From Diabrotica undecimpunctata (Eukaryota > Arthropoda > Insecta > Coleoptera > Chrysomelidae), in NCBI RefSeq assembly GCF_040954645.1, contig NC_092807.1, positions 49,670,991-49,734,990 of the forward strand: a stretch of DNA of 64,000 bases, in the 5' to 3' direction. Of the stretch, positions 2,988-56,076 are shown piece by piece. The notes below the pieces were generated by a model, which saw only the letters and a list, made by a program, of their open reading frames with translations, was not told the DNA's origin and did not search any database. The number at the start of each line of letters is the position of its first letter. The stretch's first letter is position 1. Both the position numbers and the translations under genes were made by a program.

Positions 2988-3032
2988 ACGACCGGTTTCG
3001 CTTTCTACAATATGCAAAGCATCTTCAGGTCA
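2988..3032 (-). ncRNA. Hammerhead-ribozyme-like motif, Penelope-type (locus a)
   Basis: On the minus strand: GAC (stem I 5' arm), CUGAAGA, one extra U, stem II GCUUU/AAAGC around a 12-nt loop, GAAA, then a palindromic stem III (ACCGGU), C as cleavage base, and GUC pairing with the initial GAC. This is the layout of a type I hammerhead with a minimal stem III. Such ribozymes are known from the pseudo-LTRs of Penelope-like elements. The extra U after CUGAAGA is non-canonical. Activity is unproven. Confidence 0.55.
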
Positions 3033-3039
3033 CGATACA

Positions 3040-3870
3040 AAGTTAAATAAATGATGCCGGTACTCTATTAATTGATGGTTGAAAGAACATGATTCAAACT
3101 ATCTTGTATTGTTGATTGGAGAACTCAAGTCAACTATTGTAATTGTTTAACAGTAAACAGGGAAGTTCTTGAGGAGACAGATTTTATCCAATGAAGTAGA
3201 GATAGGTGAAATGTAATTGTTTGTTTGATGAGAGTAATGTTCTATACCATTAAGTTCTTTAAAGTTATTTATATTTATTCTGGAGATATATTTATGAAAT
3301 GTGTGTTATTTATTGAGATTTTTATTTTTGTTTTGGGAGGTGACAGTTGTAAGACAATGAATAAGAATAGATGTACAAATTGTGTGGGTGTGCAATTAGA
3401 TTAGCTTGTAATTATCAAATTTCTTTGATAGAGTTATCTTGTAATATGTGGCAAATGGATGTAAAGTTCACTATATAAAGTTAAAAATTAAAATTGAGAC
3501 ACTTTAAAACACACAGAAAACACACAAAAAACACTTAAAAAACGGGGGGACGAAACAGACATTAAATTTAAAAAAGGGGGAGGATTTGGAAGAACTACAT
3601 CTCTTATTTTGAGACAATGAGGTTTTTGAGACCACTACTGACAGGGATTAACTGATCGCCAAAGATCCCCAAACATCGCCCCTATCTTAACCCCCTTAAG
3701 ATCTAATCTGGGAATAAATTTAATTCTCATGCATGGATAATTTTTCGACAGAAAAATATTCCCCCAGCCCGCGGAGTGAAGAGTCTCGCCTATTAACTTT
3801 AAATAGCCTAATCGGCGCGGTATTTACTTTGATATCACGTCTATGCTGATTAAAAACTCTTTTTTCTTCT
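3040..3870. other. AT-rich intron sequence, no gene recognised
   Basis: No coding region or clear repeat seen. 3536-3545 has a short G run, and 3480-3540 has repeated ACAC/AAAAC-rich segments. Confidence 0.4.
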
Positions 3871-3872
3871 TC

Positions 3873-4217
3873 TCATTGCGCCGTCTCCTTTCGAAGGTTG
3901 GCGATCCAAATGGCAATTGTAGTTTTGGAAACTGCTGCGCGAAAGATCTCTCCGGATGAGCTTTCGAACGATCTCCTCAGGTCTTTCAGCCACGAGTTCT
4001 GGCGTCTTTCTATTGATCTTTTGCCCGGTACTTTTCCTTCCAGTATAACTTGAAGTAATCCATATCTTTCGCCTCTCAACACATGACCCAAGTATTGCAT
4101 TTTCCTCTCTTTGATTATTCTTAGTAATTCTTTTTGTTTACACATGCGACGAAGTACCTCAACATTAGTAACTCTTTGTACCCATGGAATCCTTAACATT
4201 CGTCTGTATATATACAT
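3873..4217 (-). pseudogene. LINE ORF2 C-terminal fragment (family with 'YRRMLRIPW')
   Basis: An open frame of 114 codons starts MYIYRRMLRIPWVQRVTNVE and contains RMQYLGHVLRGERYGLLQ-like and SWLKDLR blocks. These are the conserved tail downstream of the reverse transcriptase in RTE-related LINEs. It ends with a stop just after the conserved NLRKETA. The same family recurs at 47640-49095, 51340-51592 and 58260-59690. It is 5' truncated, as is usual for LINE insertions. Confidence 0.75.
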
Positions 4218-4219
4218 CT

Positions 4220-5855
4220 CAATTAAAAACTCAGTAATTATTTTTTAAATTTCTAGGTGGAACAGAGAAGAAACTTATTGAAGAGAGAGACAGTAAATAA
4301 CCATCTTAATTGAGACATCTGGCAAATTTAAATAAACACTTATTGTTCATATTTGTGAGTCGTAATTTTTACAGAGAAAGTGAAAGTTGAAATACGTGAA
4401 TTAAAACTTTATAAAGAACAGGACGTTCAAAATGCTTCAAGTTTAGATCGATAAACGTAATATGGTAGTACTGTTTAATCGTTTATCGAACTTTCAATAA
4501 TCTATTTTGGAATTCATTGCCATAAGCTTTTCTGCTCGTCTTTGTTTTTGTAAGTTAATAAACATACCATGTTCACATACGTTCGTCTCACTTTAAAACA
4601 CATTTTGGGTTTCTTTAATATCACCAAAAAATAATATCTATCTATATAAAAGGCTATGCTGACAGTGACATCTCACGCTGTAAGTCCAGTCAACTAACGG
4701 AGCCATATAGGAAAGAAATATGAACTACCATATTTCAATCATATTGATATTATACATTAATATAATTAATAATTAATTTTAATAATATTTTAAGGTACAA
4801 TTTATTATAAAACAATGTAAAGGTTTACGTTATTTTAGATTTAAAACCTTCTTTCCTAGCGTCATCTAGGAAAGAAAATATGAAAACTACTCAAATCTGA
4901 GTCAAATCTTCATATTTTGTTCTTGAAATAATACGTTCAATTAAAAATACTAAAAATATTAATTACATATATTAATACATATTAATTACACAGATAATTA
5001 ATAATACGAATATTTATTATTATTTTTTTCGCAAAATTGACAAAAATCTTGGTTGCTTTAATTTAAAGGTAAGATTTATTTTGCAAAATAATTTATATGT
5101 TAGTTTATATTTATTTGGTTTATATGCAAGAAGGTACGTGCTGGTTTTGTACATAGATCGATTTCATAAGACGACAGTTAATTTTTTTAAAACTTTTTTA
5201 TAACAACTCGAGAAATATCGGACCGACTTAGGTAATTTTGATTTTAAAATATTTGTATAAATCTGACATTTCAATCATATTTTGTTTTGAAACGGTACAA
5301 ATGGGTACAATTGATTTATTGCTAACAATTTTGATTAATGACGTATAATATATATTATACCTCATACATCACTGGTTTATAAATTTATAAAGAAATATTT
5401 ATTTAATAGAGAAATAACATTGAATATAAAGAAATAAAGGCTTTAGAAAATTTATAAAGTAATATATATTGCCTTTAATTGATTTAGAGCGTGTATATCA
5501 CTTCTACATATTTCGTAATGACATTGCTTCGTTGTATCAAATTGATATGCTAATTTAGGCACTTTTTTATTTATTTTAGTATTTTTTTTGTCAATAAATA
5601 GACTTTCTGTGGTATTTTTTATCCCATTTAGGTATGTGTTCACATGCACTTTATTGTTATTTATATTATTAACCTAACCTAACATGTTTGTTTACAAAAA
5701 ACTGTACGGAAAGAATAGCTGACACTAGTTTGCGATAAAAAGTCGCATTAATGATTTAAATAGTTTTTTAGTGTTTTGTGGTAGGTGTAGAATACATCGT
5801 CGGATCGTGACGTATGATTACATCATTGGAAAACAGAAGAGAAGGGAACAAATAT
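4220..5855. other. AT-rich intron sequence; possible Helitron-like start near 4630
   Basis: No gene was found. 4630-4670 reads TCTATCTATATAAAAGGC, which resembles the start of some insect Helitrons, but I found no matching CTRR end or hairpin. Frame 5452-5649 (minus) is unrecognised and of AT-rich composition; I do not call it a gene. Confidence 0.3.
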
Positions 5856-5857
5856 GT

Positions 5858-6370
5858 TAAGACAGAAAAAACACACATGGCGGCAATGCCAAAAGGGTAT
5901 TATATCATATCTCCGTTGTTATTAGTCCGATTGGAGCGTGTGATGTGTTGAATGAAAGGTAAGGAATAAAGAATATACTAACATAGAAAAAACAAATAAG
6001 GCAGCTACCAAAAGGGCAGTACACCGTATCTTCAATATTAATGCACATATAGCGACATAGGAGATATCATAAGACACTATGAATAAAAATATATTTACTG
6101 TAAGACAAATTTTAATTTATTGACTTAAAGAAAGTCTCTGGCTAAGTACTAAAAAAACAACTGACCGAATCCTAAAAAACAAACAAAGCAACTACCAAAA
6201 GGGCGTTACACAGCATTTCGTTATTAATGAACGTATAGCGATATACGAGATATTACATGACACTATGGATGATAATAGACACACTATAAGGTAAAATTTG
6301 CTTTATTGGCCTGAAGAAGGCCTCTGACTGAGTACAAAATATACAATAGCCAAATCCTAGCATATGACTC
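5858..6370. repeat. Three imperfect tandem units around CTACCAAAAGGGC
   Basis: The block AAAACAAA..GCAACTACCAAAAGGGCGT recurs near 5889 (short unit), 6006 and 6193. Each is followed by similar text (TATAGCGA...GAGATAT then ACACTATG). The spacing between the last two is about 187 bases. It looks like a decayed satellite-like array or the internal repeat of a non-autonomous element. Confidence 0.6.
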
Positions 6371-6438
6371 ATCAAATAAAACGACACGCAACATGTAGTA
6401 GATATAATGTATATAGGGTGCCATCAAATATATGTATC

Positions 6439-6442
<4 letters not shown>

Positions 6443-6496
<54 letters not shown>
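6443..6496. repeat. (TA)n microsatellite
   Basis: Uninterrupted TA dinucleotide run. Open frames across it (MYIYIYI) are artefacts of the repeat. Confidence 0.95.
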
Positions 6497-6499
<3 letters not shown>

Positions 6500-6724
6500 G
6501 ATACAGTAAAAAAATGGTCAAAAGAGTCAGAAGAGTATCAGATCATACTTTATATTTACTTGGTTTACATGAAAGAAGTTTATTGTTTAAAAAATTTAAC
6601 GAGTGACTTCAGAGTGCCATCAATTGAACCTTCCGTCGCATGCGATGGGCAGAATTACTAGTTGTTTTATAACATTTTAAAAGTGTCAATAAGAATTCAA
6701 TGTAAATTTTAAATAAAGTAGACA

Positions 6725-7125
6725 AAAATAGACAATATCCCTGTTTAAGGCCCTCTGATACATGTTTTCTTTAGATCCATTCTTGTCAAAACTTTAAATG
6801 GAGATTTTAAAGGTACTGTTTCGTAGGCCTTTTCGAGATCTATGAAGACAAGATCGGTAAGATTTCTAACAACAAGTTTCTCGATTACTTTTTGGAGAGT
6901 AAAAATATTGTGCATACGAGACTTTCCTGCCCGGAAGCTGCTCTGTTCCTCTATTTGTTGGAACTACGTCTCTATTCGTTTTTTAAGGATTCGGCTATAC
7001 AACCTTCTCACCGAGTTAGTGACGCTAATGCCTCTATAATTATAGCATACTTTTCTGTCTCCTTTTTTGTAGATGGGCATTATGCTAAATTCCAACCTGT
7101 AAGAATATTTCGGCTTTGACTATTA
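6725..7125 (-). pseudogene. LINE reverse transcriptase fragment
   Basis: Minus-strand reading gives MPIYKKGDRK, YNYRGISVTNSV, RRLYSRILKKRIETQ, then SFRAGKSRMHNIFTLQKVIE and DLVFIDLEKAYETV. These are reverse transcriptase domains 1 to A, including the FIDLEKAY form of the first catalytic aspartate block. The fragment stops soon after domain A. It sits in intron 2 of CCDC61, about 370 bases from exon 2. Confidence 0.7.
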
Positions 7126-7498
7126 TACTGGACTTTTCGTCCTCCAGGCTTGACGCCGGTTTCAAAATAGAATTTTAAGAAAATTAGACATTAAAGTTTA
7201 ATTTTTCAAAATAAATTTTGAAAATGGATTCTGACCATCACGTCAAATCAATCATCAAATAAAATAGTCAAAATCTTACGATTTTACTTAATTCCCATTA
7301 TATATTAATAACTTTAAAACGAAAAATTTGATACGAAAATACCTCTAGAACAATTTACCGAGAATAATGTACTAAAAATAAAATACAGAACAATCCACAT
7401 ATAGAACTTACACAAAGGCGAAAACGAAGCTTTTTTTTTAATAATTCCTACTTATCTTTTTCTAATAGCTAAGATTATATTTTAAACTGTCTACTTAC

Positions 7499-7581: not shown

Positions 7582-7759
7582 CTAAAAAATATTTAGAGAT
7601 GACAAAAATGTTCTATATGCATTACCTATTTATATTATCAGAAAATATGATTCTCATCTATTATTTAGGATTAGATTACTAAAAGGGAACAAAAAAGATA
7701 AATCAATATTATTCTTGTCTTCTTCAATTTTTGTTTCCTATAAATCTGAACTCTCATCA

Positions 7760-8218: not shown

Positions 8219-8224
8219 AACATG

Positions 8225-9330: not shown

Positions 9331-9334
9331 CTTT

Positions 9335-10180: not shown

Positions 10181-10184
10181 TAAT

Positions 10185-10740: not shown

Positions 10741-10741
10741 T

Positions 10742-12845: not shown

Positions 12846-13826
12846 ATGAATAGACAAGTGATATCTGAGTTCAACAGAGCTAGAATCGTTACTTTGATTG
12901 AGGAAGGCCACACACAAGTCGACGTTGTTGTCCGGGTTGAAGTTAATTAGAGTGATGTGTCCCGGATTGTGAAAAAATATCGAGAGGCGAATTCTGTTAG
13001 CGATCGTCCAAAAAGCGGAAGACTCAGAATTACTACCAATGTCCAAGAACGCTTTTTAACGTTAACTGCCCGGAGAAACCCCACTATGACTGCCCCAGCT
13101 ATTAGAAGAGAGCTCCAGCAAGCTGATAATATTGTAATTTGCGATCAGACTATTAGAAAAAGGTTACATTCGGCGAATTTATTTACAAGAAGACCATTGT
13201 TTGTACCAAAGCTTACGTTAGAGCAGAAAAGGACTAGACAGGAATGGGCCAATGAACATTTACAATGGCATGACAACAGATGGGAAAACGTTTTATTTTC
13301 TGATGAAACAAAAGTTAGCCTTTTGTCGGGTAATCGCCGAATTAGGATTTGGAGGAACCCAAATCGACAGGATAGACTTAACCAAGCTGTCCAAAGAGTC
13401 TCATATCAAGGTGGCTCCATAATGCTTTGGGGCGGCATCATGCTAAATAATAAAACTCCTTTAATTCCTATTGTTGGTAACGTGAATGGACAAATTTATA
13501 TTGATACTATTCTTAGGCCTGTTGTACGCTTGTGGCGAGGAGCTGTTGGTCCAGAATTTATTTTTATGGACGGCAATGCGCCTCCCCATCGTATGAGACA
13601 TGTGGCAGATTTTTTAGAGACAGAAGATATTGAACACGGATGGGATATGCTCAAAAGAAAAATTCAGTCTCGGCAGCCACCCCCAAGGACACTACAAGAC
13701 CTTAGAATAGCAGCAATTGAAGAATGGGGTATCATGGACCAGAACTACATTAATACACTTATAAGAAGCATGGGATATCGCATGCAGTCTTGCATTGATG
13801 CAAGAGGTGGAAATAGGGTATATTAA
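12846..13826 (+). pseudogene. Tc1 transposase with premature stop and catalytic-region deletion
   Basis: ATG at 12846 (MNRQVISEFNRARIVTLIEE) opens the helix-turn-helix region. A TAG at 12948 stops it after 34 codons, and the same frame then runs open from 12957 for 289 codons. Catalytic signs: LFSDETKVSL (first D), MLWGGIM, and FMDGNAPPH (second D). The DWP..SPDLNPIEH.WD block expected next is missing: ETEDIEH is joined directly to GWDMLKRKI. Only about 20 residues separate the second D from the surviving IE, instead of the 34 of a DD34E enzyme. The protein must be inactive. The C-terminus is otherwise complete. Confidence 0.92.
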
Positions 13827-14193: not shown

Positions 14194-14437
14194 TATGAAA
14201 GTAAAAGATTGCATTTCATTTCAATAGGAACTCCACCATTGCTCTACACGTGTTTCGAGTTATTCAACTCATCATCAGGAACACTTGTGGAAGTTCAACT
14301 GAAATGAAATGCAGTCTAGTCTAGTTCATTTCAGTTGAACTTCCACAAGTGTTCCTGATGATGAGTTGAATAACTCGAAACACGTGTAGAGCAATGGTGA
14401 AGTTCCTATTGAAATGAAATGCAATCTTTTACTTTCA
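14194..14437. repeat. Near-perfect 113-115 bp inverted repeat with two hammerhead-like motifs (locus b)
   Basis: Left arm 14194-14308 and right arm 14325-14437 are almost exact complements, with a 16-base spacer. Each arm holds a hammerhead-like motif: 14240-14283 on minus and 14350-14393 on plus. The plus copy reads UGUUC, CUGAUGA, extra U, GAGUU-GAAU-AACUC, GAAA, palindrome CACGUG closed by an A-U pair, A as cleavage base, then GAGCA, which pairs with UGUUC (one G-U). Inverted pairs of pseudo-LTRs are usual around Penelope-like elements. No reverse transcriptase remains between these arms. TA repeats lie on both sides. Confidence 0.75.
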
Positions 14438-17394: not shown

Positions 17395-17867
17395 GAGACA
17401 GTCTAACTCAGTCTGTCATATCCATATTTAAAGATGTTTCCAATATTAAGATAGCTAAATATAATATCATAAATAGCAAATAACTTTTTTCTCAAATTAA
17501 AGACCCAGTACCAACCTTATATATGATTAATGTGGTATATGAAATACCGTGTCTAGGATGTGAAAAAACCTACATTGGCCATACATCACAGTGGCTAAAA
17601 CAACGTATCACACAGCATAAAAGGGATTGCCGCTTACGAAAAAATACTTGTACAGTAGTCGAGCACTATAAAAACACCGGTCATCTGTTAGACTACAACA
17701 ATGCTCGTATTTTGGCACAGACTGAAAATTACAAAAGTAGGTTATTTTTGGAGATGTACCACATTAAGAAAAATAAACAAACTTTAAATTATAAAACAGA
17801 CACTGGGCAATTAAGCAACATAATATTGCAATATATTGAACAAAATTTAAAACTACACTCACCTTAA
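17395..17867 (+). pseudogene. Penelope-like GIY-YIG endonuclease domain (C-terminal part)
   Basis: The open frame from 17523 reads MINVVYEIPCLGCEKTYIGH, TSQWLKQRITQHKRDC, then a VVEHYKNTGH block and LFLEMYHIKKNKQTLNYKTD. VYEIPC..C...YIGHT is the GIY-YIG core with the Penelope-specific cysteine pair; H-K-R-D-C and the E in RLFLEMYHI are the expected downstream residues. Upstream (17395-17520) a broken frame continues the linker to the lost reverse transcriptase. GIY-YIG nicks target DNA to prime reverse transcription. Confidence 0.88.
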
Positions 17868-18276
17868 TGATTAATCATACTAACTAGCCTTAATGATTAA
17901 TTAAAGAAATAATGTTCCTCTAATGTTTTCTTACATTGTGATTTTTTGCATTTTGAAATAACTTTTACTTGTTCCATCTTATTTATTGTTAACGAACGTG
18001 CTCAAAGATATTTTAAAATTTTAACATGCATTTTATTGGATGTACATATACATCAGCAATAATGTTATTTTAATGTTTCAATTTTATTTATGTGTATAAT
18101 CTTTTAATTTCTGTAAGTATTGTAAATCTAAGTGTACGTCAGTTTTTTGAATTGTTTGTTTTTTACAGTTACTCCCGATGAAGCTATTAAATAAATGACG
18201 AAATATTGAGCTTTAGAAAAAACAAAGATTTTTATTTAATATAGACCACATACCCGATATTTCCAACATACTTATA

Positions 18277-18391: not shown

Positions 18392-18600
18392 TAAGATGGA
18401 AGGCAACCGTATATACGTATTTCTGACTATTGGTCGTCTTCAGTACGGTGCAGCCAAGTTAGAAAAGGAGCATATTAACTTGGGAAAGGATCACTACAGG
18501 AGATACACTGCACCGTACTGAAGACGACCAATAGTCAGAAATACGTATATACAGTTGCCTTCCATCGATATACCATTTTTGGTTTTCTGTTTTGCGAGAC
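18392..18600. repeat. Head-to-head pair of Penelope-type ends with hammerhead-like motifs (locus e, copies 1 and 2)
   Basis: 18392-18504 (minus) and 18505-18600 (plus) are inverted copies around GGATCACTACAGGAG. Motif e1 is 18407-18448 minus and e2 is 18513-18554 plus: CCGUA, CUGAAGA, C, GAC-CAAUA-GUC, A, GAAA, palindrome AUACGUAU, A, UACGG. In e1 the two stem I arms (CCGUA/UACGG) pair perfectly. In e2 one arm reads UACAG and loses a pair. Confidence 0.7.
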
Positions 18601-18782: not shown

Positions 18783-18940
18783 CCTGTAGTTATCCTTTCC
18801 CAAGTTAATATGCTCTTTTTCTAACTTGGCTGCACCGTACTGAAGACGACCAATAGTCAGAAATACGTATATACGGTTGCCTTCCATCGATATACCATTT
18901 TTGCTTTTCTGTATTGCGAGACATGCCATTACTTTTTACT

Positions 18941-33467: not shown

Positions 33468-33508
33468 TTTGACGTTTCGATTTCCACTCAGTAAATCGTT
33501 TTCAAAAA
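33468..33508 (-). ncRNA. Degraded hammerhead-like motif (locus g)
   Basis: Minus strand: UUU, UUGAAAA (for CUGANGA), extra C, stem II GAUUU/AAAUC, GAAA, ACGU palindrome, C, AAA pairing with UUU. Further text (TTGTGACTTAAT) matches the family at 55882-56076. The two changed core bases suggest it is inactive. Confidence 0.45.
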
Positions 33509-39941: not shown

Positions 39942-39984
39942 TCTCGACGTTTCGCCAATACTAGGGGTTGGCATCTTCTGGAGA
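39942..39984 (-). ncRNA. Hammerhead-like motif downstream of Jockey copy A (locus h)
   Basis: Minus strand: UCUC, CAGAAGA (U4 changed to A), extra U, stem II GCCAA/UUGGC, GAAA, ACGU palindrome, C, then GAGA pairing with UCUC. The GUC cleavage triplet is intact. It lies 3' of a proline- and lysine-rich ORF end (40200-39990) and of the Jockey RT and Penelope GIY-YIG, all on minus. Confidence 0.55.
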
Positions 39985-40260
39985 TGTTACTGCTTCGCTT
40001 GTAACCTCAAACTGCGTTGTACCATTGTTGTGTTTGTCTTGTGTGCTTTAGGGTGTTTTCTTGGGATTGGTTGGCTGTGCTGTCCTGTTTTAGGCTTTTG
40101 CCTCTTCAGGTTTTTCTTTGTGTTGGGTGTGGCTGGCACTGGATTTGATGTTGTATCTGCTGGTGTGCGGTGTGTTTGTTTGTTGGAGGTTGCTGCTCTC
40201 ACTAGTCCTGGACAATCGGGGGCGAAAGGTATGTAAGTGAACGGTTCTTTTCAGAATTTT
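39985..40260 (-). pseudogene. Possible Penelope-like ORF tail or shared 3' module
   Basis: A 71-codon minus frame, MRAATSNKQTHRTPADTTSN to SLRLQAKQ, is rich in K, T and P and ends just before hammerhead-like locus h. The start CCCCGATTGTCCAGGA and the segment KTGQ are also present at 43960-43750, again right after a Jockey 3' end. It could be the C-terminus of a Penelope-like ORF separated from its GIY-YIG domain by the Jockey insertion, or part of the Jockey 3' UTR. Confidence 0.4.
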
Positions 40261-40299: not shown

Positions 40300-41812
40300 A
40301 ATTATAAATTTATTAATTTATTAAATTAGTGTATGTATATCGCGACGCGTGAGGGCAGCTGTGGACTGGTACCTCAAAAAATAGACAGGTATCGTTGTGC
40401 AATGGGATCGGAAAACCACAAAAAACCGATCCCCCCTGTCTATGCCAGTTCGAAGTGAACATTTAGTGTTATAAGCGACGGTAAAAGAGGGGAGTTGCCT
40501 CCTGTATGTCAATGTATTCATCAGGGAGCTCGTTGCTGGCGAGTTCCAGCAGAATTGCGGGTAGGAATGGGAGTTTGGGTTTGGGTTTTCTTCTGAATAC
40601 ATTGCCGATGGATGAGCAGGTAGTTTTGGGGATGCTTTGGGCTCTGAGATTTTGGCCCCGGATGGTGCGAATTGTGTAACTCCTGCTCAGAGAGGAAAGC
40701 CTCTCATTGATGGGCTGGATGTTCGACAGGCGATGAATATGTGCGGAAGGATAGTCGTAACGTTTTCTGTTTAGTCTCCGTAAGATTCTCCTTTCCAGTG
40801 ACAGTAGTCTATTATTGAGGTGTTTGGGCATCACAGCACAAATACAAGATTTGTACTCGATGACCGGTCTGATGAATGTTTTGTATGTATGAATAAGTGT
40901 ACGTGTGTGTGTGTGTGTGACCGAATTTGCCACTAAGAGCATTGAGAAGTCCGAGTCGGCTCCTAACCTTGTTACAGGTTCTGTCCATGTCGTTACTCCA
41001 GCGTAATGTTTGTGTAAACAACACGCCGAGATATTCGATCTGGTTTCGGAGTCGGAGTCGTTCTCCCCATAAACTCAAATTATACCTTTCGGTGATGATG
41101 GGTGTGATATATTGACTGCGGTATGGATGTCTGAAAAGGATTCATCTGTGTTTTGTTTGGGTTAGGTGTCACTCTCCACCTCTGACACCATCGCTCGACT
41201 AGGAGCAGATGATTTTGAGCTAACCTAAGTGTAGCGTCGATGTTTTGTGTTGTTGTGAGAAGTGCTGTATCGTCTGCGTATAGTAGGGTGGTTGTGTTAG
41301 TGTGTCGAGGGTTAGGGAAGTCGCTATTGTAGATAGAGTAAAGTATTGGTGCCAACACGGAACCCTGAGGTACTCCCGCTGTGGGAGTGAAGGATGTAGA
41401 GAATTGATCACGCTCCTTGACTGTGATCCGCCTCTGAGAAACATATGAATGGATAAGTCTGACGAATGGAAGTGGTAGCCCGATGCTCTCTAGTTTCTTG
41501 ACCAGTCCCACGTGCCAGATTTGGTCAAAGGCTTTTTGAACATCGAGGAAGACACCTAGTGAAACTTTGCCGTCGTTCAGACTTTGTGTTAAGTGTGTGA
41601 CGATTTCTGTCAATGCCGTTTTGGTCGAGTACCCTTCTCTAAAGCCGAATTGATAGGGTGGGATGATATTGTGTTCTGTGGTGAAGTCTACGAGTCTTTC
41701 TTTAAGGATTCTCTCGAAGACTTTCGCCAGGACGTTAAGAAAGAGATATCGGCCTATAAGAGTTTGGATCGGTACGTGGCTTGCCTTTTTTCAAAAGCAT
41801 AGTTGTAATTTA
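40300..41812 (-). pseudogene. Jockey-type LINE ORF2, 5'-truncated copy A with 3' UTR
   Basis: From 41812 the minus frames read KKGKPRTDPNSYRPISLLNV, IIPPYQFGFREGYSTKTALT, GVFLDVQKAFDQIW (domain A), VPQGSVLAPILYSIYNSDFP (domain B) and LLYADDTALLTTTQNIDATL (domain C). Next come RLRNQIEYLGVLFTQTLRWS and the C-terminal TYKTFIRPVIEYKS and ELPDEYIDIQEATPLFYRRL, ending at 40469. Frameshifts lie at about 41080 and 40930 (in a (TG)n run), so it is dead. The 3' UTR (40468-40300) matches that of copy B (44176-44040). Confidence 0.88.
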
Positions 41813-41814: not shown

Positions 41815-42445
41815 TTTCCCACTCGCCTCTCCTCCATTGGTTTCGGTTTGAGGGGGCGTGTCGTCGTTTGTAGTAGCCTTTCTTTTTTCGTGTTTGGCGG
41901 GAAGGGTGTTTGTGGATTTTAATATTGGTATCCATGTCTTGTTAATTTTCAGTCCTTCTTCTATTCGAATAAAATTATTTGGGTGCTTATATAGTTCCAC
42001 CTCTTCCCGATACAACCGTAGGTAGTACTGTGAAGTTTTGTCCAGCATCTGCGTTTCTTCAAATAGTATTCGATGTTCTCCGCTTCCCAAAACGTGTTCG
42101 GCAACGGCAGATTTGTCGATATGTCCTAAACGACAATGGCTTTTATGTTCATTTATCCTTGTATTTGTGTGTCTTTTCGTGGTTCCCACATATACCATTC
42201 CACATGTGCATGGTATTCGATATACTCCAGCCGTTGCTAATGGGTCGTGTTTGTCTTTCACCGATCTTAAACAGTCCTTGATTTTCTTTGTAGGCTTGAA
42301 AATGGTCTTTACGTTGGCTTTCTTAAGTATTCGCCCAATTCTGTCCGTTACCCCCGATATGTAAGGCAAGAACGCTTTGCCTTTACATTCTGTTTCTTCG
42401 TTCTTTCTCTGTGTAAACCTGCATAATTTGTTTACACATCTATAA
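41815..42445 (-). pseudogene. Penelope-like element, GIY-YIG domain and linker
   Basis: From about 42445: NKLCRFTQRKNEETECKGKA, then the open frame MPYISGVTDRIGRILKKANV with VYRIPCTCGMVYVGTTKRHT, RINEHKSHCRLGH, SAVAEHVLGSGEHRILFEET and QYYLRLYREEVELYKHPNNF. VYRIPC.CG..YVG is the GIY-YIG core; the CxC form is typical of one Penelope lineage. The frame runs intact from 42369 to 41791, but the last dozen residues are probably from the adjoining Jockey junction at about 41815. The reverse transcriptase is not present upstream. Confidence 0.9.
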
Positions 42446-42639
42446 CTTTATCTAGTTGTTAAGTGAAATTGATTTTTTTTCAGTGCTTATTTTCATAAAT
42501 AACTTATGTTTTTTGTCAATATGTTTTTTTTTTCATCTCTTGCATAATTTCAATTCTGTTGCTTACAACACTGTTGCGGCCGGCCCACCATTCAAATAAT
42601 AAGAAAATTAGCGGAATAATCATTCATGAATAGTTTGTT

Positions 42640-43694: not shown

Positions 43695-43735
43695 ATCACT
43701 ACAGCTGTTTCGGCAGGGTGCTTTTCTCAAGTGAT
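43695..43735 (-). ncRNA. Hammerhead-like motif downstream of Jockey copy B (locus i)
   Basis: Minus strand: AUCAC, UUGAGAA (degraded core), a weak GCA/UGC hairpin, GAAA, palindrome ACAGCUGU, A, then GUGAU, which pairs perfectly with AUCAC. It lies 88 bases inside the intron after the anillin-like exon donor. Confidence 0.4.
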
Positions 43736-43739: not shown

Positions 43740-44035
43740 TTTTGTCGCATTGTCACGATGGTCTTTCTTTGTGGTTGGATGTTTTCTCGTTTTGTGATTT
43801 CTTGTCCTGTTTTAGAGTTTTCACCTCTTCAGGACGTGTTTTGTTTTTTCTTTGGTTGATTGACTTTTTTCGCTGTGTGGGTTCCACTGGTGAATGGCTT
43901 CGTGGGCGTGTCGGCGGAGGAGGATCCTGGACAATCAGAGGTGAAAGGGTTGTTGAGCTAAAACGGTCCTTTTCAGAATTTTTTAGTAAAAAATATGTTT
44001 ATGAATTGAGTGAATTTATATGTATACAATTTAAT
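43740..44035 (-). pseudogene. Lysine-rich ORF tail or shared 3' module (twin of 39985-40260)
   Basis: Minus frames hold PDCPG, TAKKVNQPKKKQN and SKTGQEITKRENIQPQRK. The stretch TTTCACCTCTGATTGTCCAG and the preceding AAAAAATTCTGAAAAGGACC align with the segment after Jockey copy A. Confidence 0.4.
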
Positions 44036-46724: not shown

Positions 46725-47635
46725 CTGAATAAGATGAGGGGGGAGAACTCTTTGACTTTGATCATTCAGAATTATGTCTGTATTTTTAAATTTGTTAGTT
46801 TCCATAGATTCTAATAAAGATAGCTTACGGCCTTTATTTTGAATGTGAAGAATTTAAAATTGGTCATTAAAAGAATGATTATGGTCTATAAGGCAGTGTT
46901 CGTAAGTAGAATCTGTTTTTCTATTATTAAAAGCCCTTTTGTGTTCCGCAATCCGTTTTTTATAAGTTCTTCCAGTTTGACCGATGTAAGTTTTTGGACA
47001 GTCGCCACATATTAGTTTGTATACACCACTGCGTAAGTGCTTTTTCCTTTCACGCTTGTTGTTCTTAATATATTTATCTAAATTATTGTTTGTTCTGAAA
47101 GTTGGTGTTATTCCTTTCTTTTTTATGTGTTTGGCTGTTTTTGTTGAAATCTTGCCTGTATATGTAATCGAGCAGATGGAACTGTTTTTTCTTTGGTGGT
47201 GGAAATACTAATTGCAGGGCTTTATTATGTAATTTTTGATTAAAATATTTACTGTTTGTTCGTTGTACCTATTGTTTACTACTATTTGCTTAATAATATT
47301 CAATTATATCTCGAAGTCGTTTGCTGATATGGAAATTTCTATTAATCTATATAACATGCTATGGTAGATGATGAATTGTGTATAGTCGTGTCAGTATGGG
47401 TAGGTTTTTGCAATACAGAGAACTAACGTTTGTTTTTAAGTCTGATAATTTTTAAATCTACAAAATTTATGGATTATGTTCGTATTGTAAATTCAATACG
47501 ACTATGGAGTCAATTAATATACGATAAGAATTGGTCAAGTTGCCTATTAGTTCCTGTAAAACATACCAGTATATCGTCTACATATCTCCATTAATTTAAA
47601 AACTGTTTGAATACCGGATGTTTTGAAATCTTTAT
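46725..47635 (-). pseudogene. Penelope-like element: palm/thumb end of reverse transcriptase and GIY-YIG
   Basis: Minus-strand frames: ISKHPVFKQFLN then RYVDDILVCF (YVDD active site at 47584-47573), FLSYINLHS-like and SINFVDLKIIRL, KPTHTDTTIH, then KTAKHIKKKGITPTFRTNNN, SGVYKLICGDCPKTYIGQTG, RTYKKRIAEHKRAFNNRKTD and HNHSFNDQF. YKLICGDC..TYIGQTGR is a typical Penelope GIY-YIG core. Single-base shifts break it. Its N-terminal half lies at 49095-49560; an RTE-like LINE (47640-49095) separates them. Confidence 0.88.
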
Positions 47636-47639
47636 TTCT

Positions 47640-49095
47640 TCTTCTTCTTGTAGTTCCTTCTCCTACCGGAGGTTGGCTATCATCACAGCTATCCGTACGT
47701 TATTGGCGGCTGCTCTGAAAAGATCTACTGAGCTGTAACTATACCACTCTCTTAGGTTTCTTAGCCAGGAAATTCTTCGTCTTCCTATGGATCTTTTACC
47801 CTTGATTTTACCTTGCATTATGAGCCTTAACATCTCACATTTCGCACATCTGGTAATGTGGCCTAAATATTCCAGCTTTCTTGTTTTGATGTGCTTTATG
47901 ACCTCGCAATCCTTTTATAGCCTTCTTAACACTTCTGCATTTGTAACTCGTTTGGTCCATGGTATTTTCAAAATCCTTCTATAGCACCACATCTCAAATG
48001 ATTCCAACTTCTTTATATTATCCACTTTTAGTGTCCAGCTTTCCATTCCATACAACAAAGTCGAGAACACGTAGCATCTTAAGGCTCTTATCCTCAGCTC
48101 CAGAGGAAGGTCTCGATTAACAAACATTGCTTTCATTTTTATAAATGCTTGTCTTTCAATTCAATGCGTGTCCTTATTTCTCTGCCTTGGTCATTGTTTT
48201 CATTTACCCAGGTTCCCAGATATTTGTAGTTATTCACTCTTTCCTGTTATTGTTGTTACTTGTTTCCCTCGATATCTAGCCTTCCTACTGTATGTTGCTT
48301 AGAAATATTCATGCATTTGGTTTTCTTAACGTTTATTTGTAGTCCATATTTTATACTGACTTGATGTAATCTATTTACTAAGCGTTGCAGTGATTCTAGA
48401 CTGTCTGCAAAAACAGCGATGTCCTCTGCGATTGTTCTTGTTCCCCTGATATTGCTTCCTTAACAATATCTTCGCTGTACAGATTGAATCACAGTGGGGA
48501 CAGCACGCAACCATGTCTAACACCCTCTTTTGATTTCTATAGTTTCTGTATCGACATTTTCGTTTCTAACCTTTGCTTTTTGATTCCAGTACAGATTGAC
48601 AATAACCCGTAGATATATCTCGACTATCCACATTCTTTTCTTTTAACAGTTTTACGAGTTTCTGATGTCGTACTCTATCATGGAGATCCTGGTTCATATC
48701 TAGTCGTCTTTGCGCGAGAACGTTAAAAGCGAACAGAGCCTCTCTCGTTCCTAGTCCTCCTCTAAATCCAAATTGGGTGTCATCTATTCTTCTATTTTTT
48801 TTTTGTATAGTCTTCCATTTGTTATTTTGAGAAATATCGTAAGTGTGTGGCTTATTAAGGAAATTGTTCTGTACTGGAAGCATTCTGTCGCATATACGGA
48901 CTGTGGTAGTGTCCACAAACGTGAAAAGTAACCAATCTTCGGGTATTACTCCTGTTGTATATACTTTGTTGAACAGATCTAAAAGTATATGCAGTGTTTC
49001 TTCGTCAATGCATTTAATTAGCTCAGTGGGTATCTGATCTGCGCCTACTGATTTTGCCGTCTTTGCATTTCTAATTACCTGTTCTAATTCGCACA
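47640..49095 (-). pseudogene. LINE (family of 3873-4217) nested in the Penelope-like element
   Basis: From 49095: EQVIRNAKTAKSVGADQIPT (fingers), GVIPEDWLLFTF, DTQFGFRGGLGTREALFAFN, QDLHDRVRHQKLVKLLKEKN, then a degraded middle and MKAMFVNRDLPLELRIRALR, LLYGMESWTLKVDNIKKLES and FEMWCYRRILKIPWTKRVTN, ending in broken frames at about 47640. Between TF and DTQFGF about 40 residues read as unrelated text where the 'PKK....YRxISL' block should be. The active-site YADD domain is lost in 48140-48560. Confidence 0.8.
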
Positions 49096-49560
49096 TTATT
49101 TCTAGATGATCCATAATAAGTCCTGCACTGTTATTTGTATATATTTAATAATTAAATTTAAAGGAGTCCTGGTTTATGCAAATTTTAAGAAGACGTAAAA
49201 TTTCAGATGTAATGATTGAATTTGGTTTTGATTGGAAAAGGTTTTTTACTACAACAAAAGTTTCTATAGAAGGTACACTACGAAAAATGTTCTTTACGCC
49301 AAATGAAATTAATCTGGAGTTATTGGTTAACTGAAAATGTTGTATTTTATTAACTAGTTCTATTGTATTTTTTACGGTAAATTTAGGTGGAAATTTAGTG
49401 TTCTAAAATAATCTCTAACAGTTTTTTTTTGAAAGTTTATATGACGGAGCTGTATAAAAAGAAACTACAGGTGTTATTAGGTGATCCGGTTTATGTAGTT
49501 TAATAAAAGTGTATAATTTAGGAGGTTTTTGTAGTTTTCATCAAGTAACGATCGAATGCA
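49095..49560 (-). pseudogene. Penelope-like reverse transcriptase, fingers part
   Basis: From 49545: PPKLYTFIKLHKPDHLI-type text, PVVSFYTAPSYKLSKKLLEI, then KFTVKNTIELVNKIQHFQLT, NNSRLISFGVKNIFRSVPSI and LRLLKICINQDSFKFN. These match Penelope reverse transcriptase (P.LYG.PK.HKP, IVS..N.P.Y.L.K, SFDV..LFTSVP). The catalytic D of SFDV is G here (SFGV), so the enzyme would be inactive. The reading continues on the other side of the LINE insertion at 47635. Confidence 0.85.
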
Positions 49561-51325: not shown

Positions 51326-52304
51326 AGTGTGGAAACCACAAACAATTCGAGAGTTACAATATTTCTGTCATGTGATGAAACATCCAGAAAAAGGTATAAG
51401 CTTCTACACCTCATAATTCAGGGCTAGATCGCCGGAAGAAGCGGGCCAGGACGAAGAAGAACATCCTGGCTCCGAAATATCCGAGAGTGGTATCAAGAGA
51501 CATCCGCTAATCTGTTTTGAGTTGCCGCACCCAAAGTTATTAATGCCAATATGATCGCCAACGTTCGATAATCGGGCAGGGTTCTGAAAGAAGAAACCAC
51601 TTATGGAATAAAACTATTTATTAATTTATTTGTTTATATACTAATTATAGAAAACGCTGAGATCCGTCGACTTTTATATAAATGTGGGCTTTTTAAACAT
51701 AAATTTAAATCCAAAGTCTGATACATGCAAGCTTAGCGTAGTCCATAAGCTTTATTTTTAATGGAACACCTTGTATATTTTTATAAAAAGCTGCTTAACA
51801 ACCTGATCTCAACAAACTGTATCATGTAGGTTCTATTATAAATAATACAGAGTAAAATTTTGAAATTATAAAGTGTGGAAATCTATGAAAATTATGAAAA
51901 ACGCTGGGACACGTGAACTTTTAAACTCAAACGTGGGCATTTTATTAAACATAAATTTCAGTAATAGATATTTCACGCAAGTCTAGCATAGTCCATCATC
52001 TTTATTTTTAATAAAACACCTAGTATATTTTTATGTTTTTAGAAGCTACTTAACAACCTTATCTCAAAAAGTATATCATGTATGTAGGGTCTATTATGAA
52101 TAATTCAAGATGGAATTTTGAAACTATGTATAATTTTCGTTAAGGCATTAAATACATAAACTTTTGAAATTATTAATTTATCACACTTTAAATAATGCTA
52201 TTTTAAATTAGCTAAATACATATTTCAATTTTCTACTATCTACTATTTCTACTATCAATATTTAAGGACACAAACGATTTTATTCCGTAAGTGGTTTCCA
52301 CACT
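51326..52304. mobile_element. MITE with AGTGTGGAAACCACTTA ends, interrupted by a LINE fragment
   Basis: The left end is AGTGTGGAAACCAC at 51326, resumed after the insertion as AACCACTTATGGAATAAAA at 51595. The right end in complement is AGTGTGGAAACCACTTACGG ending 52304. The ends match over about 27 bases. The interior holds two tandem units of about 250 bases (51645-51893 and 51894-52140; ACGCTG.GA..CGT.GACTTTT, AACATAAATTT, TAGTCCAT, ATCATGTA) at roughly 75 percent identity. No coding capacity. It ends 73 bases before the acceptor of the next anillin exon. Confidence 0.75.
51340..51592 (+). pseudogene. LINE C-terminal fragment inserted in the MITE, 8-bp target duplication
   Basis: GAAACCAC lies at 51332-51339 and 51593-51600. 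Inside, plus frames read RELQYFCHVMKHPEKG, then RRSPGRRRTSWL-like and IREWYQE-like text in broken frames, ending NANMIANVR-like. Same family as 3873-4217 and 47640-49095. Confidence 0.75.
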
Positions 52305-52377
52305 TAGTTTTTACGTTTTTATTCTACTGACCCTAGTATTTATCATAGGATTATTTAGAATTATTTTATAATTTTAG

Positions 52378-52678
52378 GCTACCGTAAATACACAACACTG
52401 TGACGAAAGTGTTGGAACATCGCATATTTCATCTTTACTCTCCACAAATGATTCTATGAAACGAAAACTAAAACGAAAAAAGTCGCATGATGTATTGTCA
52501 GAAGATTGCAGTGAAAACGGAAGTACAGATTCCATAATTGAGCAGTATAAACAAGAGTTATTCCAACAGCACTCTACCATATTCCAAATAACCAAAGCCC
52601 TCAAATATTGTAAAGCATCAAAACAATTTATTGTTGGAAAGGAGAGGATTGAAGCAGAAAAGATTCTTCTAGTTGCTA
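52378..52678 (+). CDS. ANLN: Anillin, exon encoding the start of the anillin homology domain
   Basis: Acceptor ATTTTAG at 52371-52377; donor GCTA|GTAAGT at 52679. Phase 0 in, phase 1 out, 100 codons and one base. It reads ATVNTQHCDESVGTSHISSL, a basic patch MKRKLKRKKS, then SIIEQYKQELFQQHSTIFQI, TKALKYCKAS and KERIEAEKILLVA. In anillins the homology domain opens with a helix that has QALN.C, then S.E..EAER.LL.AT, which this matches. Family knowledge: anillin crosslinks RhoA, septins, actin and myosin II at the cytokinetic ring; this helix starts the region that binds RhoA and lipids. The Drosophila gene is scraps. It lies between a MITE and another repeat element. Confidence 0.93.
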
Positions 52679-52830
52679 GTAAGTATAAATTTACATCAAG
52701 TAAAAAACTGAATATCCCTTCTCTCTAATCCAAAAGGATTACAAATGGATAAATTTTAAATTATATTTTTAATTAAATATACCATTATATATTAGAAGTT
52801 ATTACTTCTATGTAAGTTTTTTAAAGTACG

Positions 52831-53671
52831 GTATACAGCCAACCACTGGCATTGCCCATAAGGCATCAGGAACAAACCCGTCGTCACCACTGTTGTAAAT
52901 GCAAAACAATTATCGTTGCACGTCATTACCAACATTTAATCGAGTGACATATGAATGAACATTTGGCATTAAAGGTTACATCCAAGTGACATTTATTCCA
53001 TTTATGTAACATTTGACGTTAACATTTAATCGAGATTTGACATTTGTATTTATGTGATATTTGACACAGTAAGTGACATAAATGCGATATTTAATTGACA
53101 TTTGACATAAAAGGTGATAAATTGACATTTATATGTTATTCATCTGACATGTGACATTTGACGTAAAAAGTGATATTTATATGACATTAAATATCTGACA
53201 AAACGAGACATGCTTCTTTAGTTTATTGGCCTACAGATACTCGAAAAGATACACTTATGTGACATTTAATTAAAGTTTGACATTTGACATAAAACGTGAA
53301 ATTTTGACATTTATGTTTAATATGTCCAATCTTTTTGTAGTTAAGATATTTCATTCCTTTGACTTTATCAGGGTAATCTTTCGATTTGTGCCCCGGCGTA
53401 TTTTTTATACGTCTCCGTTTTAAACGATTTATGTGCCGTCTGCCCTTTAATTATATCGCACAATTTAATTTTCTCTTTAAACTTATTAAGGTTTTTTGCA
53501 CCATAAAGTATAACTTTATTAAGTAGTAGGGTCGTCATAATTGTAGTCACATTTACTTTAAAATTATATCCAAATTTACTACAATATAACAAAAATACAG
53601 TAATTGATCACAATAAATGAACAAATTATATAAAATTAATGGGAAAAACCCCGTAGTTGGCTGTATACCAT
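52831..53671. mobile_element. Non-autonomous element with GGTATACAGCCAACYAC ends and TGACATTT repeats
   Basis: The left end GGTATACAGCCAACCAC (52833) faces the right end, GGTATACAGCCAACTAC in complement (53671). Between, from 52935 to 53320, TGACATTTGACRTAAAA-type words recur about twenty times in a degenerate array (e.g. 53037, 53097, 53153, 53278). The right part is AT-rich. A 74-codon minus frame (53592-53368) is unrecognised. It sits in the anillin intron 150 bases after the exon donor. Confidence 0.65.
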
Positions 53672-53675
53672 CGTT

Positions 53676-54057
53676 AAAAAAAAAACACAGAAGTTAAAAC
53701 ACTTTACACTTGTATTGTGGTATAAAAACATATAGTTAAAACTTTATAAAAAGTGTCGTCAAAAGTTTATATACTGGCATAACGTTTTCGATCTATGATC
53801 AAATGATCCATTGTCATCGACCTAGAGTCACAACTTAAACCAAATGTAACATTCGGAATGATGTAAACCCATATAGGAGGTCACACATTTAACTTTATTG
53901 TTAGCTACAATTACATAAGGCACTGAGGATGATCTGTTCAGATCGAGAACGTTATGCCAGTATATAAATTTTTGACGACACTTTTTATAAAGTTTTAACT
54001 ATATGTTTTTATACCACAATACAAGTGTGAAGTGTTTTAACTTCTGTGTTTTTTTTG
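53676..54057. repeat. Inverted pair of Penelope-type ends with hammerhead-like motifs (locus j)
   Basis: Left arm 53676-53798 and right arm 53935-54057 are inverted copies (AAAAAACACAGAAGTTAAAA ...). Motif j2 at 53919-53958 plus: GGCA, CUGAGGA, extra U, GAUCU-GUUC-AGAUC, GAGA (for GAAA), palindrome AACGUU, A, UGCC pairing exactly with GGCA. Motif j1 (53774-53815 minus) keeps GAAA, AACGUU and UGCC but has a changed 5' half. No ORF lies between the arms. Confidence 0.65.
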
Positions 54058-54379
54058 AACAAATTATACTTTTGGATCAATTATTACAAAAATACAACAA
54101 TTGTTACATTAAAACAACAAAGCTAATTATTAAGGAGTTTTAAGCAAAACTCACCTCAATAAGTCGATTTTCTTTTGGCCGAAAATTGCACTGAACTTTA
54201 CTGTATTTTGCGGCACTTTACAACGTTTGCGTCTTCCTTAGATCGCGCTTGAGCCCTCAAAATTGCAGGATTCTTTGAAGACACGTAATATAAAAGTCCG
54301 TGTGATGTTAAAAAGTTTTTTATATTAGCACAGACACAATTAAATGCTAGTTGCGTATACATACTGTAGATTACCAAAT

Positions 54380-55630
54380 TACTAGAATATGTAGATTTGT
54401 ATATAATTTGGATTCCTGGATATAAACCGCCAACAAGAAAAACTTTGTCAGGTTCATTACTTCAGAAATGTTATATCAAAACTGAGCAAATTATTAGATC
54501 ACAAGTTGTTAAAGAAGTAGAAAATATCTGTATTACTAATGACCTCTGGATATCTGGAGTAACTGAGAGTTACATCGCATTAACAGGACAATATTTAACC
54601 GAAAATTTAGAATTTAAAACGGTTTTATTAGGCTCCTGCCATTTTTCTGGAAATCATAATTCAGAAAACATCGCTTTTGAAATTAGTGAAATTATTAATC
54701 GGTGGGGTCTAAAACGAAAAGTAAATTTTGCAGTAACTGATAATGCCTCAAATATGGTCAAAGCTATTAAAGATGTTTTGGAATGAAAACATTTAAATTG
54801 TTTTGCTCATACGTTAAATTTATTGGTGGAGGACGCACTTAAATGCTGTCGTGTACAAATAGATAAAATAAAAAGTCTTTTTTTTCGACAATTCGGCAAA
54901 AAACACATTTTAAAAAAAGTACCTTTATCTTCAGAAAGTCTTTTAAAGTATCAATTACAACATAACAAAGTTCCCAAACAACCAATCCAAGACGTGGAAA
55001 CTAGATAGAACTTCACCTATTACATGTTAAAAAGAATGACCGACTTAGAAGAGGCAATCCGTTCCACATTGGTATTAGTTAATACAGACTTAGACTTAGA
55101 CCAAATCTAAATAATGAAGACTGGATTATTTGTTCTCAACTTTCCCAAATTTTACGGCCTTTTAAAGAAATAACAAGTACAATGAGTGGCCAAAAATACT
55201 TGAAGGGTAGTTCAGTGATTGTTATGGTACGCTGCCTGCAAGAATCTTGCAATAAAATTTTAGCAAACGGTAACCTTACATCCATAGTATCCGACGTCGT
55301 ACAATTACTAATATCGGGTTTAGCAAAAAGATTTAGAGGGATAGAACAGAGTCGCACATTGTCATTATGTACATTTATGGATTCACGATTTAAAGTGCAG
55401 AGATTTTCTGATAAAAATGAAGGTAAAAAAACAAAAGAAAGAGTTAAGAAGCTGGTTACTTCTATAATTAAAGAACAGGAAGATTGTACTATTGAAAATC
55501 AACCAGTACAAGAAAAAGAAACCGATAAAGATGACTTAAGTCCATGGTGTATTTTTGATCAATTAATTGGACATGACTCATCTAAACGTACACTTGTATC
55601 GAGAGTCCATTACAATGGTGAATTTTAAAT
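54380..55630 (+). pseudogene. hAT transposase (ZBED-type), broken
   Basis: Frames in order: YKPPTRKTLSGSLLQKCYIK, ICITNDLWISGVTESYIALT (catalytic D region, T.D.W....ESY), FAVTDNASNMVKAIKDVLE (second catalytic D, TDNA.NM), HLNCFAHTLNLLVEDALKCC (CxxH region), QDVETR then TYYMLKRMTDL, and MSGQKYLKGSSVIVMVRCLQ, FMDSRFKVQRF. This is the order in ZBED/hAT transposases. A stop at 54784 and frameshifts at about 55005, 55110 and 55180 break it, and the C-terminal hATC dimerisation domain is cut short by a stop at 55626. The BED finger is not seen upstream. Confidence 0.85.
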
Positions 55631-55881
55631 AAAAGAAGAACACGGTTAACAAGAAGTAAAGTAGAAAAACTTATGTTTTTAAATGTCAATTTAGACGATT
55701 CGCGATTTAATAATAACGTGTAATGTAAATGTAAGTACGTTTACGATAAAAACGTCAACGACCCACCTCTACTCGTTACCTCTGTCCCAACTTTGATTCG
55801 CTGCTTTGACCACGGGAGACGAGACGTTGCCAAATTATTTTGTATGAAGGTTTTTTATTGCGGCGTCATATGCGGTGTATT

Positions 55882-56076
55882 ATTTTTATTGGGAATAAGG
55901 CACAATGTGACTTTAAAATAAGCTTATTTTGATGTTTAGATTTTTAATTCGGAAATCGTACTTAAAATACGAAACATTAATAAATATCATTTATATAAAA
56001 CGATTTCCGAAGTGAAAATCAAAATGTTATATTACACTTATTGTAAAGTAAAATTGTGGCATATTCCCAATAAAAA
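55882..56076. repeat. Inverted pair of degraded Penelope-type ends (locus k)
   Basis: Left arm 55882-55959 and right arm 56000-56076 are inverted copies starting TTTTTATTGGGAATA. Each holds GAUUUCCGAA...AAUC as stem II with degraded GAAA boxes (UAAA, AAAA). The outer part (CCACAATTTTACTTTACAAT) matches the text next to locus g at 33420, so g and k are one family. Confidence 0.55.

What the first reader, a model, noticed from the sequence alone, without database searches (positions are those of the whole stretch)
2988..56076. About twelve hammerhead-ribozyme-like loci with systematic covariation and one extra base after CUGANGA
Loci a (2988), b (14240, 14350), c (15911), d (16066, 18172), e (18407, 18513, 18835), g (33468), h (39942), i (43695), j (53774, 53919) and k (55882, 56000) share no overall sequence but have one design. 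The stem I arms differ between loci yet stay complementary: GAC/GUC, UGUUC/GAGCA, CUC/GAG, CCGUA/UACGG, UCUC/GAGA, AUCAC/GUGAU, GGCA/UGCC. Stem III is always a full palindrome (ACCGGU, ACACGUGU, AUACGUAU, ACGU, ACAGCUGU, AACGUU), which suits action as a dimer. Hammerheads in Penelope-like pseudo-LTRs are known. What looks unusual is that in at least seven loci one extra base (U, A or C) sits between CUGANGA and stem II. Either this is a distinct hammerhead variant or the motif does something else.
Basis: partly seen in the sequence, partly recalled or inferred. Interest (0 to 1): 0.9.

Follow-up and report, generated by a model that had tools for sequence, protein, structure and literature searches.

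The report
Retrotransposon hammerhead ribozymes with extra base
The window carries small self-cleaving RNA motifs of the hammerhead kind that belong to Penelope-like retrotransposons; most have one extra base next to the active core, and in one family that base seems to complete the start codon of the element's own protein.

Summary
Hits with at most one core mismatch: 5 in the window, 0.13 per shuffle. They are minimal type I hammerheads tied to Penelope-like elements (PLEs) in a 1.74-Gb genome, probably Diabrotica or a close relative. The extra base is systematic: of 100 listed matches to CTGANGA...GAAACGT, 72 have a stem II and 65 of these have exactly one extra base (A 36, U 27, G 2). A second class pairs U3 with A8 (27,807 matches, control 3,524) and mostly has C. 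In family h the extra U makes A9-U-G10.1 an AUG, in frame with the PLE protein in the one intact copy read. The experimentally studied Anolis element PAc has the same layout, and several other PLE proteins fit it. Families a, b and j have the AUG but a closed frame, so the start codon is a use of the base, not its general cause. Dimer cleavage, the U3-A8 pair and insertions of one or two bases are already in print.

The parts
2987..3031 (-). locus a: hammerhead, stem I GAC/GUC, CTGAAGA, extra T, stem II 5 bp, GAA, ACCGGT, C17; AUG frame closes after 5 codons
14240..14283 (-). locus b1: hammerhead with perfect core and extra T, in the left arm of a 117-nt inverted repeat
14350..14393 (+). locus b2: inverted partner of b1 (16 nt between arms); perfect core, extra T; AUG frame closes after 2 codons
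16066..16104 (-). locus d1: degenerate hammerhead (2 core mismatches), extra A; in an inverted repeat flanking a PLE remnant
17484..17867 (+). PLE endonuclease remnant between d1 and d2 (GIY-YIG match just under the Pfam cut-off; tblastn matches to PLE proteins)
18172..18210 (+). locus d2: degenerate hammerhead-like copy with extra A, about 308 bp downstream of the endonuclease ORF on the same strand
   Evidence: read; not found by the scan
18407..18448 (-). locus e1: hammerhead-like, C-A mismatch at 10.1/11.1 in place of a bulge; palindrome ATACGTAT
   Evidence: read; not found by the scan
18513..18554 (+). locus e2: as e1, inverted partner
   Evidence: read
18835..18876 (+). locus e3: as e1, inverted partner
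   Evidence: read
33468..33508 (-). locus g: U3-A8 class hammerhead (TTGAAAA), extra C, ACGT
39942..39984 (-). locus h: hammerhead (CAGAAGA, U4 to A as in the intact genomic copy read), extra T giving AUG; frame MPTPSIGETSRTNFRRQQPNSP, cleavage predicted 26 nt after the AUG
41851..42519 (-). PLE endonuclease-region remnant upstream of h on the same strand; an RT ORF of another kind (RVT_1, 41080-41790) lies between
43695..43735 (-). locus i: degenerate U3-A8 class (TTGAGAA), ACAGCTGT, stem I AUCAC/GUGAU; homologue in L126 lies 3' of a PLE endonuclease match
   Evidence: read; not found by the scan
53776..53799 (-). locus j1: inverted partner of j2; only the 3' half of the motif is recognisable
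   Evidence: read
53919..53958 (+). locus j2: hammerhead, extra T, AACGTT (GAG in place of GAA; a genomic copy in L122 has GAA)

Best explanation
The motifs are minimal type I hammerhead ribozymes of Penelope-like retrotransposons, present as 3' terminal repeats, solo repeats and inverted repeat pairs. They keep a three-helix fold with palindromic stem III but usually carry one extra nucleotide (here called 9a) between CUGANGA and stem II. Two core classes exist: C3-G8 (mostly A or U at 9a) and U3-A8 (mostly C). In tandem PLE transcripts the ribozyme should cut once per unit, as a dimer or with protein help (inferred from related elements). In family h, as in Anolis PAc, the extra base is the middle letter of an AUG in frame with the element's ORF. 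If translation starts there (published for PAc, inferred for h), the ribozyme straddles the start of translation and its cut falls 26 nt downstream of the start codon, so an uncut RNA is an mRNA and a cut RNA has lost its start codon (geometry shown; switch inferred). In the A-type family (CTGAAGA-A-GCTAC) candidate AUGs lie just 3' of the cut, so cleavage would spare translation (inferred).
For: Structure above chance. Stems of different sequence stay complementary: 47 of 48 stem I cells and 63 of 64 stem II cells over 16 families, against means of 21.2 and 38.6 when 3' halves are shuffled. Genome-wide: CTGANGA...GAAACGT 8,768 matches against 906 for the reversed pattern. 65 of the 72 listed rows with a stem II have one extra base. 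22 of 30 fetched loci have the whole structure although stem I was not in the pattern; 22 of 22 have one extra base. PLE context: 11 of 30 loci have a PLE protein match within the roughly 3 kb fetched; 8 of 30 carry a full hammerhead 172-486 bp downstream of a same-strand match (read from the table; in L145 it is a second hit, not the pattern match). Window d2 lies about 308 bp downstream of its ORF. Start codon: an intact h-family copy (open frame 906 aa) reads HLQKMPTPSVGETSRTN, with the Met codon at A9-U-G10.1. The PAc paper puts its start codon in the same place and the cut 26 bp downstream; my geometry gives 26 for h and PAc. PLE proteins with M-x(n)-ETS at the start: P0029, P0031, P0032, P0038, P0062, P0065; internal in P0037 and P0057. 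Where residues before that Met are given they are compatible with CTG-ANG-ATG: PLRM in P0034 (a host gene model carrying the PAc peptide), PLKM in P0037, SLTM in P0057, MM in P0038.
Against: No cleavage was tested here. Only one intact copy's start was read (L159, 131 bases): its frame is open for 22 codons upstream of the AUG without a stop or another Met, so that this Met is the start rests on analogy with PAc. Its core is CAGAAGA, so the ribozyme of that family may be weak. The AUG frame closes after 5, 2 and 12 codons in a, b and j and soon in L131, L132 and L155, so these U9a hammerheads do not start a PLE ORF there. In the 200-kb sample, 6 of 7 hits at <=1 mismatch had no extra base, mostly in two repeat arrays. 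Of 46 listed PLE proteins whose N-terminal domain my pattern recognised, 8 have ETS before it; in P0104 it is at the domain itself, and P0062 and P0065 do not fit the stem II codon rule. P0030, a close Anolis relative, begins elsewhere. 28 of the 100 listed genome matches have no stem II. Listed rows come from the start of contig C1 and are dominated by a few families (25 and 14 identical rows), so they are not independent. 19 of 30 fetched loci show no PLE match. The PAc authors found that hammerhead mutants still insert and saw no reads ending at the cut.
Confidence: 0.8

Rival explanations
1. The extra base exists because it makes the start codon AUG; families with A or C are decayed.
For: U9a gives AUG in a, b, h, j and PAc, and several PLE proteins fit such a start.
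Against: In the listed C3-G8 rows A at 9a is at least as common as U (36 and 27), in high-copy families such as CTGAAGA-A-GCTAC with 25 identical rows, and AUG frames are closed in a, b, j, L131, L132 and L155.
Confidence: 0.1
2. Base 9a is a purely structural tolerance or gain of the minimal PLE hammerhead, with no role in translation; the AUG overlap is an accident of A9-N-G10.1.
For: A, U and C all occur; both core classes have it; solo and inverted repeats with closed frames have it.
Against: In PAc the ORF is published to start there, in h the frame continues into the PLE ORF, and the cut geometry is identical; other PLE proteins show a compatible L-[KRT]-M...ETS signature.
Confidence: 0.3
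3. The motifs act as DNA: palindromes or hairpins in inverted terminal repeats used in integration; the ribozyme likeness is left over.
For: b, d, e and j are in inverted pairs; a mismatched core (CAGAAGA) is present in an intact copy.
Against: With positions 3 and 8 free, the scanned hits use C-G, U-A and once C-A only; DNA palindromes have no need of that. Inverted terminal repeats are ordinary for Penelope elements (PMC3846280, passages).
Confidence: 0.05

Closest known systems
PAc, Poseidon element of Anolis carolinensis (PMC11167929)
   Same: Same extra U between CUGAGGA and stem II, same 19-nt stem II segment, ACGU stem III, AUG at A9-U-G10.1, cut 26 nt after the AUG, GETS peptide
   Different: PAc core is CUGAGGA; the intact h copy read here has CAGAAGA. 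PAc cleavage needed PLE protein in vitro; nothing was tested here
Small hammerhead variants of Penelope-like elements that cleave as dimers (Lunse et al. 2017; seen only as a title in reference lists)
   Same: By its title: small variants, PLE association, dimers
   Different: Whether that paper or Cervera and de la Pena 2014 records the extra base could not be checked; neither is held
U3-A8 covarying hammerheads (Perreault et al. 2011, PMC3088659, passages)
   Same: The same compensatory core pair
   Different: There several examples; here 27,807 pattern matches (control 3,524) in one genome; of 27 printed rows with a stem II, 24 have one extra base
Metazoan non-LTR retrozymes (PMC7229834, passages)
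   Same: Type I hammerheads in tandem repeats; a 319-bp tandem repeat with a hammerhead is present in this genome (L112)
   Different: The L112 and L126 array hammerheads have no extra base; that L112 is a retrozyme was not tested

Membership tests
Hammerhead ribozyme (type I) | CUGANGA ... GAA(A) core with stems I, II, III and H17 | tested here: met
   a, b1, b2 perfect; h, j2 one mismatch; shuffles 0 and 0.13
Hammerhead ribozyme (type I) | compensatory changes in stems across families | tested here: met
   16 families that I picked (one of them PAc; e, c, k and the no-extra-base arrays left out): 47 of 48 and 63 of 64 cells pair; 0 of 5000 shuffles reach either value. Part of the families were found with a stem criterion and several share a stem I; the 22 of 30 pattern loci were not chosen on stem I
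Hammerhead ribozyme (type I) | no base between A9 and stem II in the canonical form | tested here: not met
   one extra base in 5 of 5 window hits at <=1 mismatch and 65 of 72 structured genome rows; published PAc also breaks this rule
Hammerhead ribozyme (type I) | match to an Rfam hammerhead model | tested here: inconclusive
   none at gathering or E<=10 in the window; but the perfect-core copies without extra base in L112 and L126 are also missed at E<=1, so Rfam does not see motifs of this size
Hammerhead ribozyme (type I) | self-cleavage at H17 | not testable with these tools
   needs RNA
Penelope-like element terminal repeats | repeat 3' of an RT/GIY-YIG ORF, direct or inverted | tested here: met
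   d2 in the window; 8 of 30 genome loci; inverted arms; layout as in PMC3846280. Not shown for a, b, g, j
Penelope-like element terminal repeats | terminal repeat includes the start of the ORF | tested here: met
   h family, one intact copy; not shown for a, b, j

The most novel reading that the evidence does not exclude
PLE hammerheads form their own ribozyme class with a near-obligatory nucleotide 9a whose identity is biased by the 3-8 pair (A/U with C3-G8, mostly C with U3-A8; L125 and i, with U3-A8 and A, are exceptions). In lineages from beetles to lizards this nucleotide has been used to place the start codon inside the catalytic core, so that protein-assisted self-cleavage switches one RNA from messenger to transposition template.
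Probability: 0.3. Interest if true: 0.75.

Novelty: new member of a known kind. Interest (0 to 1): 0.5.

Why it matters
The activity and role of the minimal hammerheads in Penelope-like elements are called a mystery in a 2020 review (PMC7761336, passage). If the start codon lies inside the ribozyme core in several lineages, while in others candidate AUGs lie just outside the cut, then comparing the two tests whether cleavage competes with translation. A genome with more matches to the U3-A8 pattern than to the C3-G8 pattern, and with 9a in most listed structured copies, is also a ready natural mutagenesis of the best-known small ribozyme.

Tried and rejected
Rfam as a test: uninformative, since it misses perfect-core hammerheads in the same genome. 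A pattern scan of viral contigs gave 107 stretches, 1 with full structure. PLE scans of viral and prokaryote collections matched 2 and 35 stretches, none a relative. MAFFT alignment of the loci was too poor for a covariance model, so I used descriptors; no model was built and no R-scape run. Reading 9a as always the start codon was rejected (see rivals). The control counts for the mismatched 3-8 combinations (C3-A8; U3-G8) were asked for and not answered, so covariation of 3 and 8 rests on the 264-kb scan (CG 8, TA 3, CA 1, other pairs 0, of 12; 724 shuffles average 0.47) plus two raw counts. L128, fetched to find the 5' part of the i-family element, gave no PLE match and no hammerhead.

Full report
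What is there. The window lies in a 1.74-Gb genome (2,867 contigs). PLE ORFs of that genome match a Diabrotica balteata protein at 87-98% (P0129), so the host is probably Diabrotica or a close relative (inference). A descriptor scan finds hammerheads at a, b1, b2 (perfect core), h, j2 (one mismatch), g and d1 (two mismatches), against 0, 0.13 and 1.6 in 60 shuffles. Loci c and k fail on reading; e has a C-A mismatch instead of a bulge; i is degenerate but has a homologue 3' of a PLE endonuclease match in L126.

The extra base. The 5 window hits with at most one mismatch have exactly one extra base, T. In 200 kb taken at fixed positions on ten contigs there were 5 strict hits: one j-family copy with the extra T, three units of a 319-bp tandem repeat with no extra base, and one copy in another array with none; at one mismatch allowed, 6 of 7 hits had none. 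So hammerheads without the base exist in the genome, mostly in tandem arrays, and in this small sample the base goes with the PLE-type motifs. Genome-wide, CTGANGA...GAAACGT has 8,768 matches against 906 for the reversed pattern. Of the 100 rows listed (from contig C1), 72 have a stem II of at least 3 bp: one extra base in 65 (A 36, T 27, G 2), none in 1, two in 1, three in 5. By distinct sequence, the rows with one extra base are T 14, A 8 and G 2. Of 30 fetched loci 22 have the whole structure, each with one extra base. 11 of the 30 have a PLE match in the fetched stretch, and 8 of the 30 have a full hammerhead 172-486 bp downstream of a same-strand match.

A second core class. With positions 3 and 8 left free, 264 kb gave 12 hits: C-G 8, U-A 3, C-A 1, and none of the other 13 combinations; shuffles gave 0.47 in all, 0.076 of them U-A. 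The 3 U-A hits (g; an inverted pair in L125) have one extra base. TTGANAA...GAAACGT has 27,807 matches against 3,524 for the reversed pattern. Of the 30 rows printed with letters, 24 have one extra base (C 19, T 4, G 1), 2 have two, 1 has three and 3 have no stem II (closing G-U pairs allowed there, not); one family supplies most of them. C3-G8 changing to U3-A8 was reported in natural hammerheads in 2011 (PMC3088659, passages). The mismatched controls could not be obtained.

Start codon. In h the bases A9, 9a and G10.1 read AUG, and the frame runs MPTPSIGETSRTNFRRQQPNSP. A search of the genome with the Henosepilachna PLE protein P0037 scored 49 of 36,600 candidates: 48 of 49 have no stop inside, 35 of 49 have open frames of 906 aa, and several lie in head-to-tail copies about 2.6 kb apart, some pairs facing each other. 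One start was read...CTCCAGAAGATGCC..., frame HLQKMPTPSVGETSRTN; the frame is open for 22 codons upstream in the 131 bases read, with no other Met. The PAc paper prints its template RNA with the start codon in capitals at the same place and gives the cut 26 bp after it; my geometry gives 26 for both. The third protein search scored 7,994 candidates, found 1,635 relatives and listed 120. Among 123 proteins (P0029-P0151; two are host genes), my pattern recognised an N-terminal domain in 46; 8 of these have ETS before it, 7 of them shortly after a Met. P0037, which that pattern missed, adds MSLAVRDETS by reading. The codons of residue 2 and of the residue before ETS can pair as stem II by Watson-Crick rules in P0029, P0031, P0032 and P0038, with a G-U pair in P0057, and not in P0062 or P0065 (chance 0.07, or 0.12 with G-U). 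By my reading P0037 also fits (S, TC / D, GA). Upstream residues, where given, are compatible with CTG-ANG-ATG in P0034, P0037, P0057 and P0038; P0054 is not.

Limits of the start-codon reading. The AUG frame closes after 5, 2 and 12 codons in a, b and j. In the A-type family there is no AUG at 9a; the candidates are in MNPLLGHSQMTRSKPGRRINYNSDSGRGSLRF (L134, L146), just 3' of the cut, and the second Met lines up with the start of P0059. The base is therefore a general trait of these ribozymes that some lineages use for initiation.

Mechanism, shown and inferred. Shown: structure, covariation, PLE context for part of the loci, and the overlap of an in-frame AUG with the core in h and PAc. From the literature: PAc cleavage is abolished by C3G or G8C, partly rescued by both, and needs PLE protein; minimal PLE hammerheads are reported to cleave as dimers (title only). 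Inferred: in tandem transcripts each cut in an h-type or PAc-type element leaves the AUG on the upstream piece, so cutting ends the RNA's life as mRNA and may commit it to being a template; in the A-type family the cut leaves the AUG on the downstream unit.

Novelty. The fold, the PLE link, U3-A8 and short insertions are in print, and PAc shows the same extra U without remark in the main-text section I read. In eight searches of the held library and the passages I opened, I saw no paper that treats the extra base as a class feature or ties it to the start codon beyond PAc, but the two most relevant papers are not held. The names retrozyme-like and hAT-like used for other repeats are my recall.

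Noticed in passing
L112:7230-7868 (-), G000 contig 3: Three tandem units of 319 bp each carry a hammerhead with perfect core and no extra base (CTGATGA, ATGATCAT): a retrozyme-like or satellite-like repeat.
   Followed up: partly
L126:4300-5800: Tandem and inverted array with hammerheads without extra base (stem I 8 bp); one copy has G8 changed to A.
   Followed up: no
P0033, P0034 (Anolis carolinensis): A serpin isoform begins with the PAc peptide MPAIDVGETSGENASGTWP, and an endothelin-converting-enzyme model carries it at residue 13: the PLE start codon may serve in host first exons (or these are gene-model errors).
   Followed up: no
G000 C6:23483608-23494661, also C44, C3:151771813-151787188, C5:122472967-122484085, C8:60084007-60092824: PLE copies without internal stops, in single copies or head-to-tail groups that face each other head to head.
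   Followed up: no
window 46863-49528 (-): A further PLE remnant (RT and endonuclease parts); the scan found no hammerhead beside it.
   Followed up: no
window 43797-43832 and 40056-40109 (-): Two similar stretches hold CCTGAAGAGG..AAAAC..CTAAAACAGGAC or close to it, a hairpin whose inner stem differs between copies and still seems to pair; read by eye, not a hammerhead.
   Followed up: no
h family, L159 and window 39974-39980: The intact PLE copy read and window h both have CAGAAGA (U4 to A), while the copy in L153 has CTGAAGA: the family may have lost ribozyme activity.
   Followed up: partly
window 12951-13826 (+) and 54370-54786 (+): A Tc3-type transposase HTH match and a weak DUF659 match (hAT-like by recall).
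   Followed up: no
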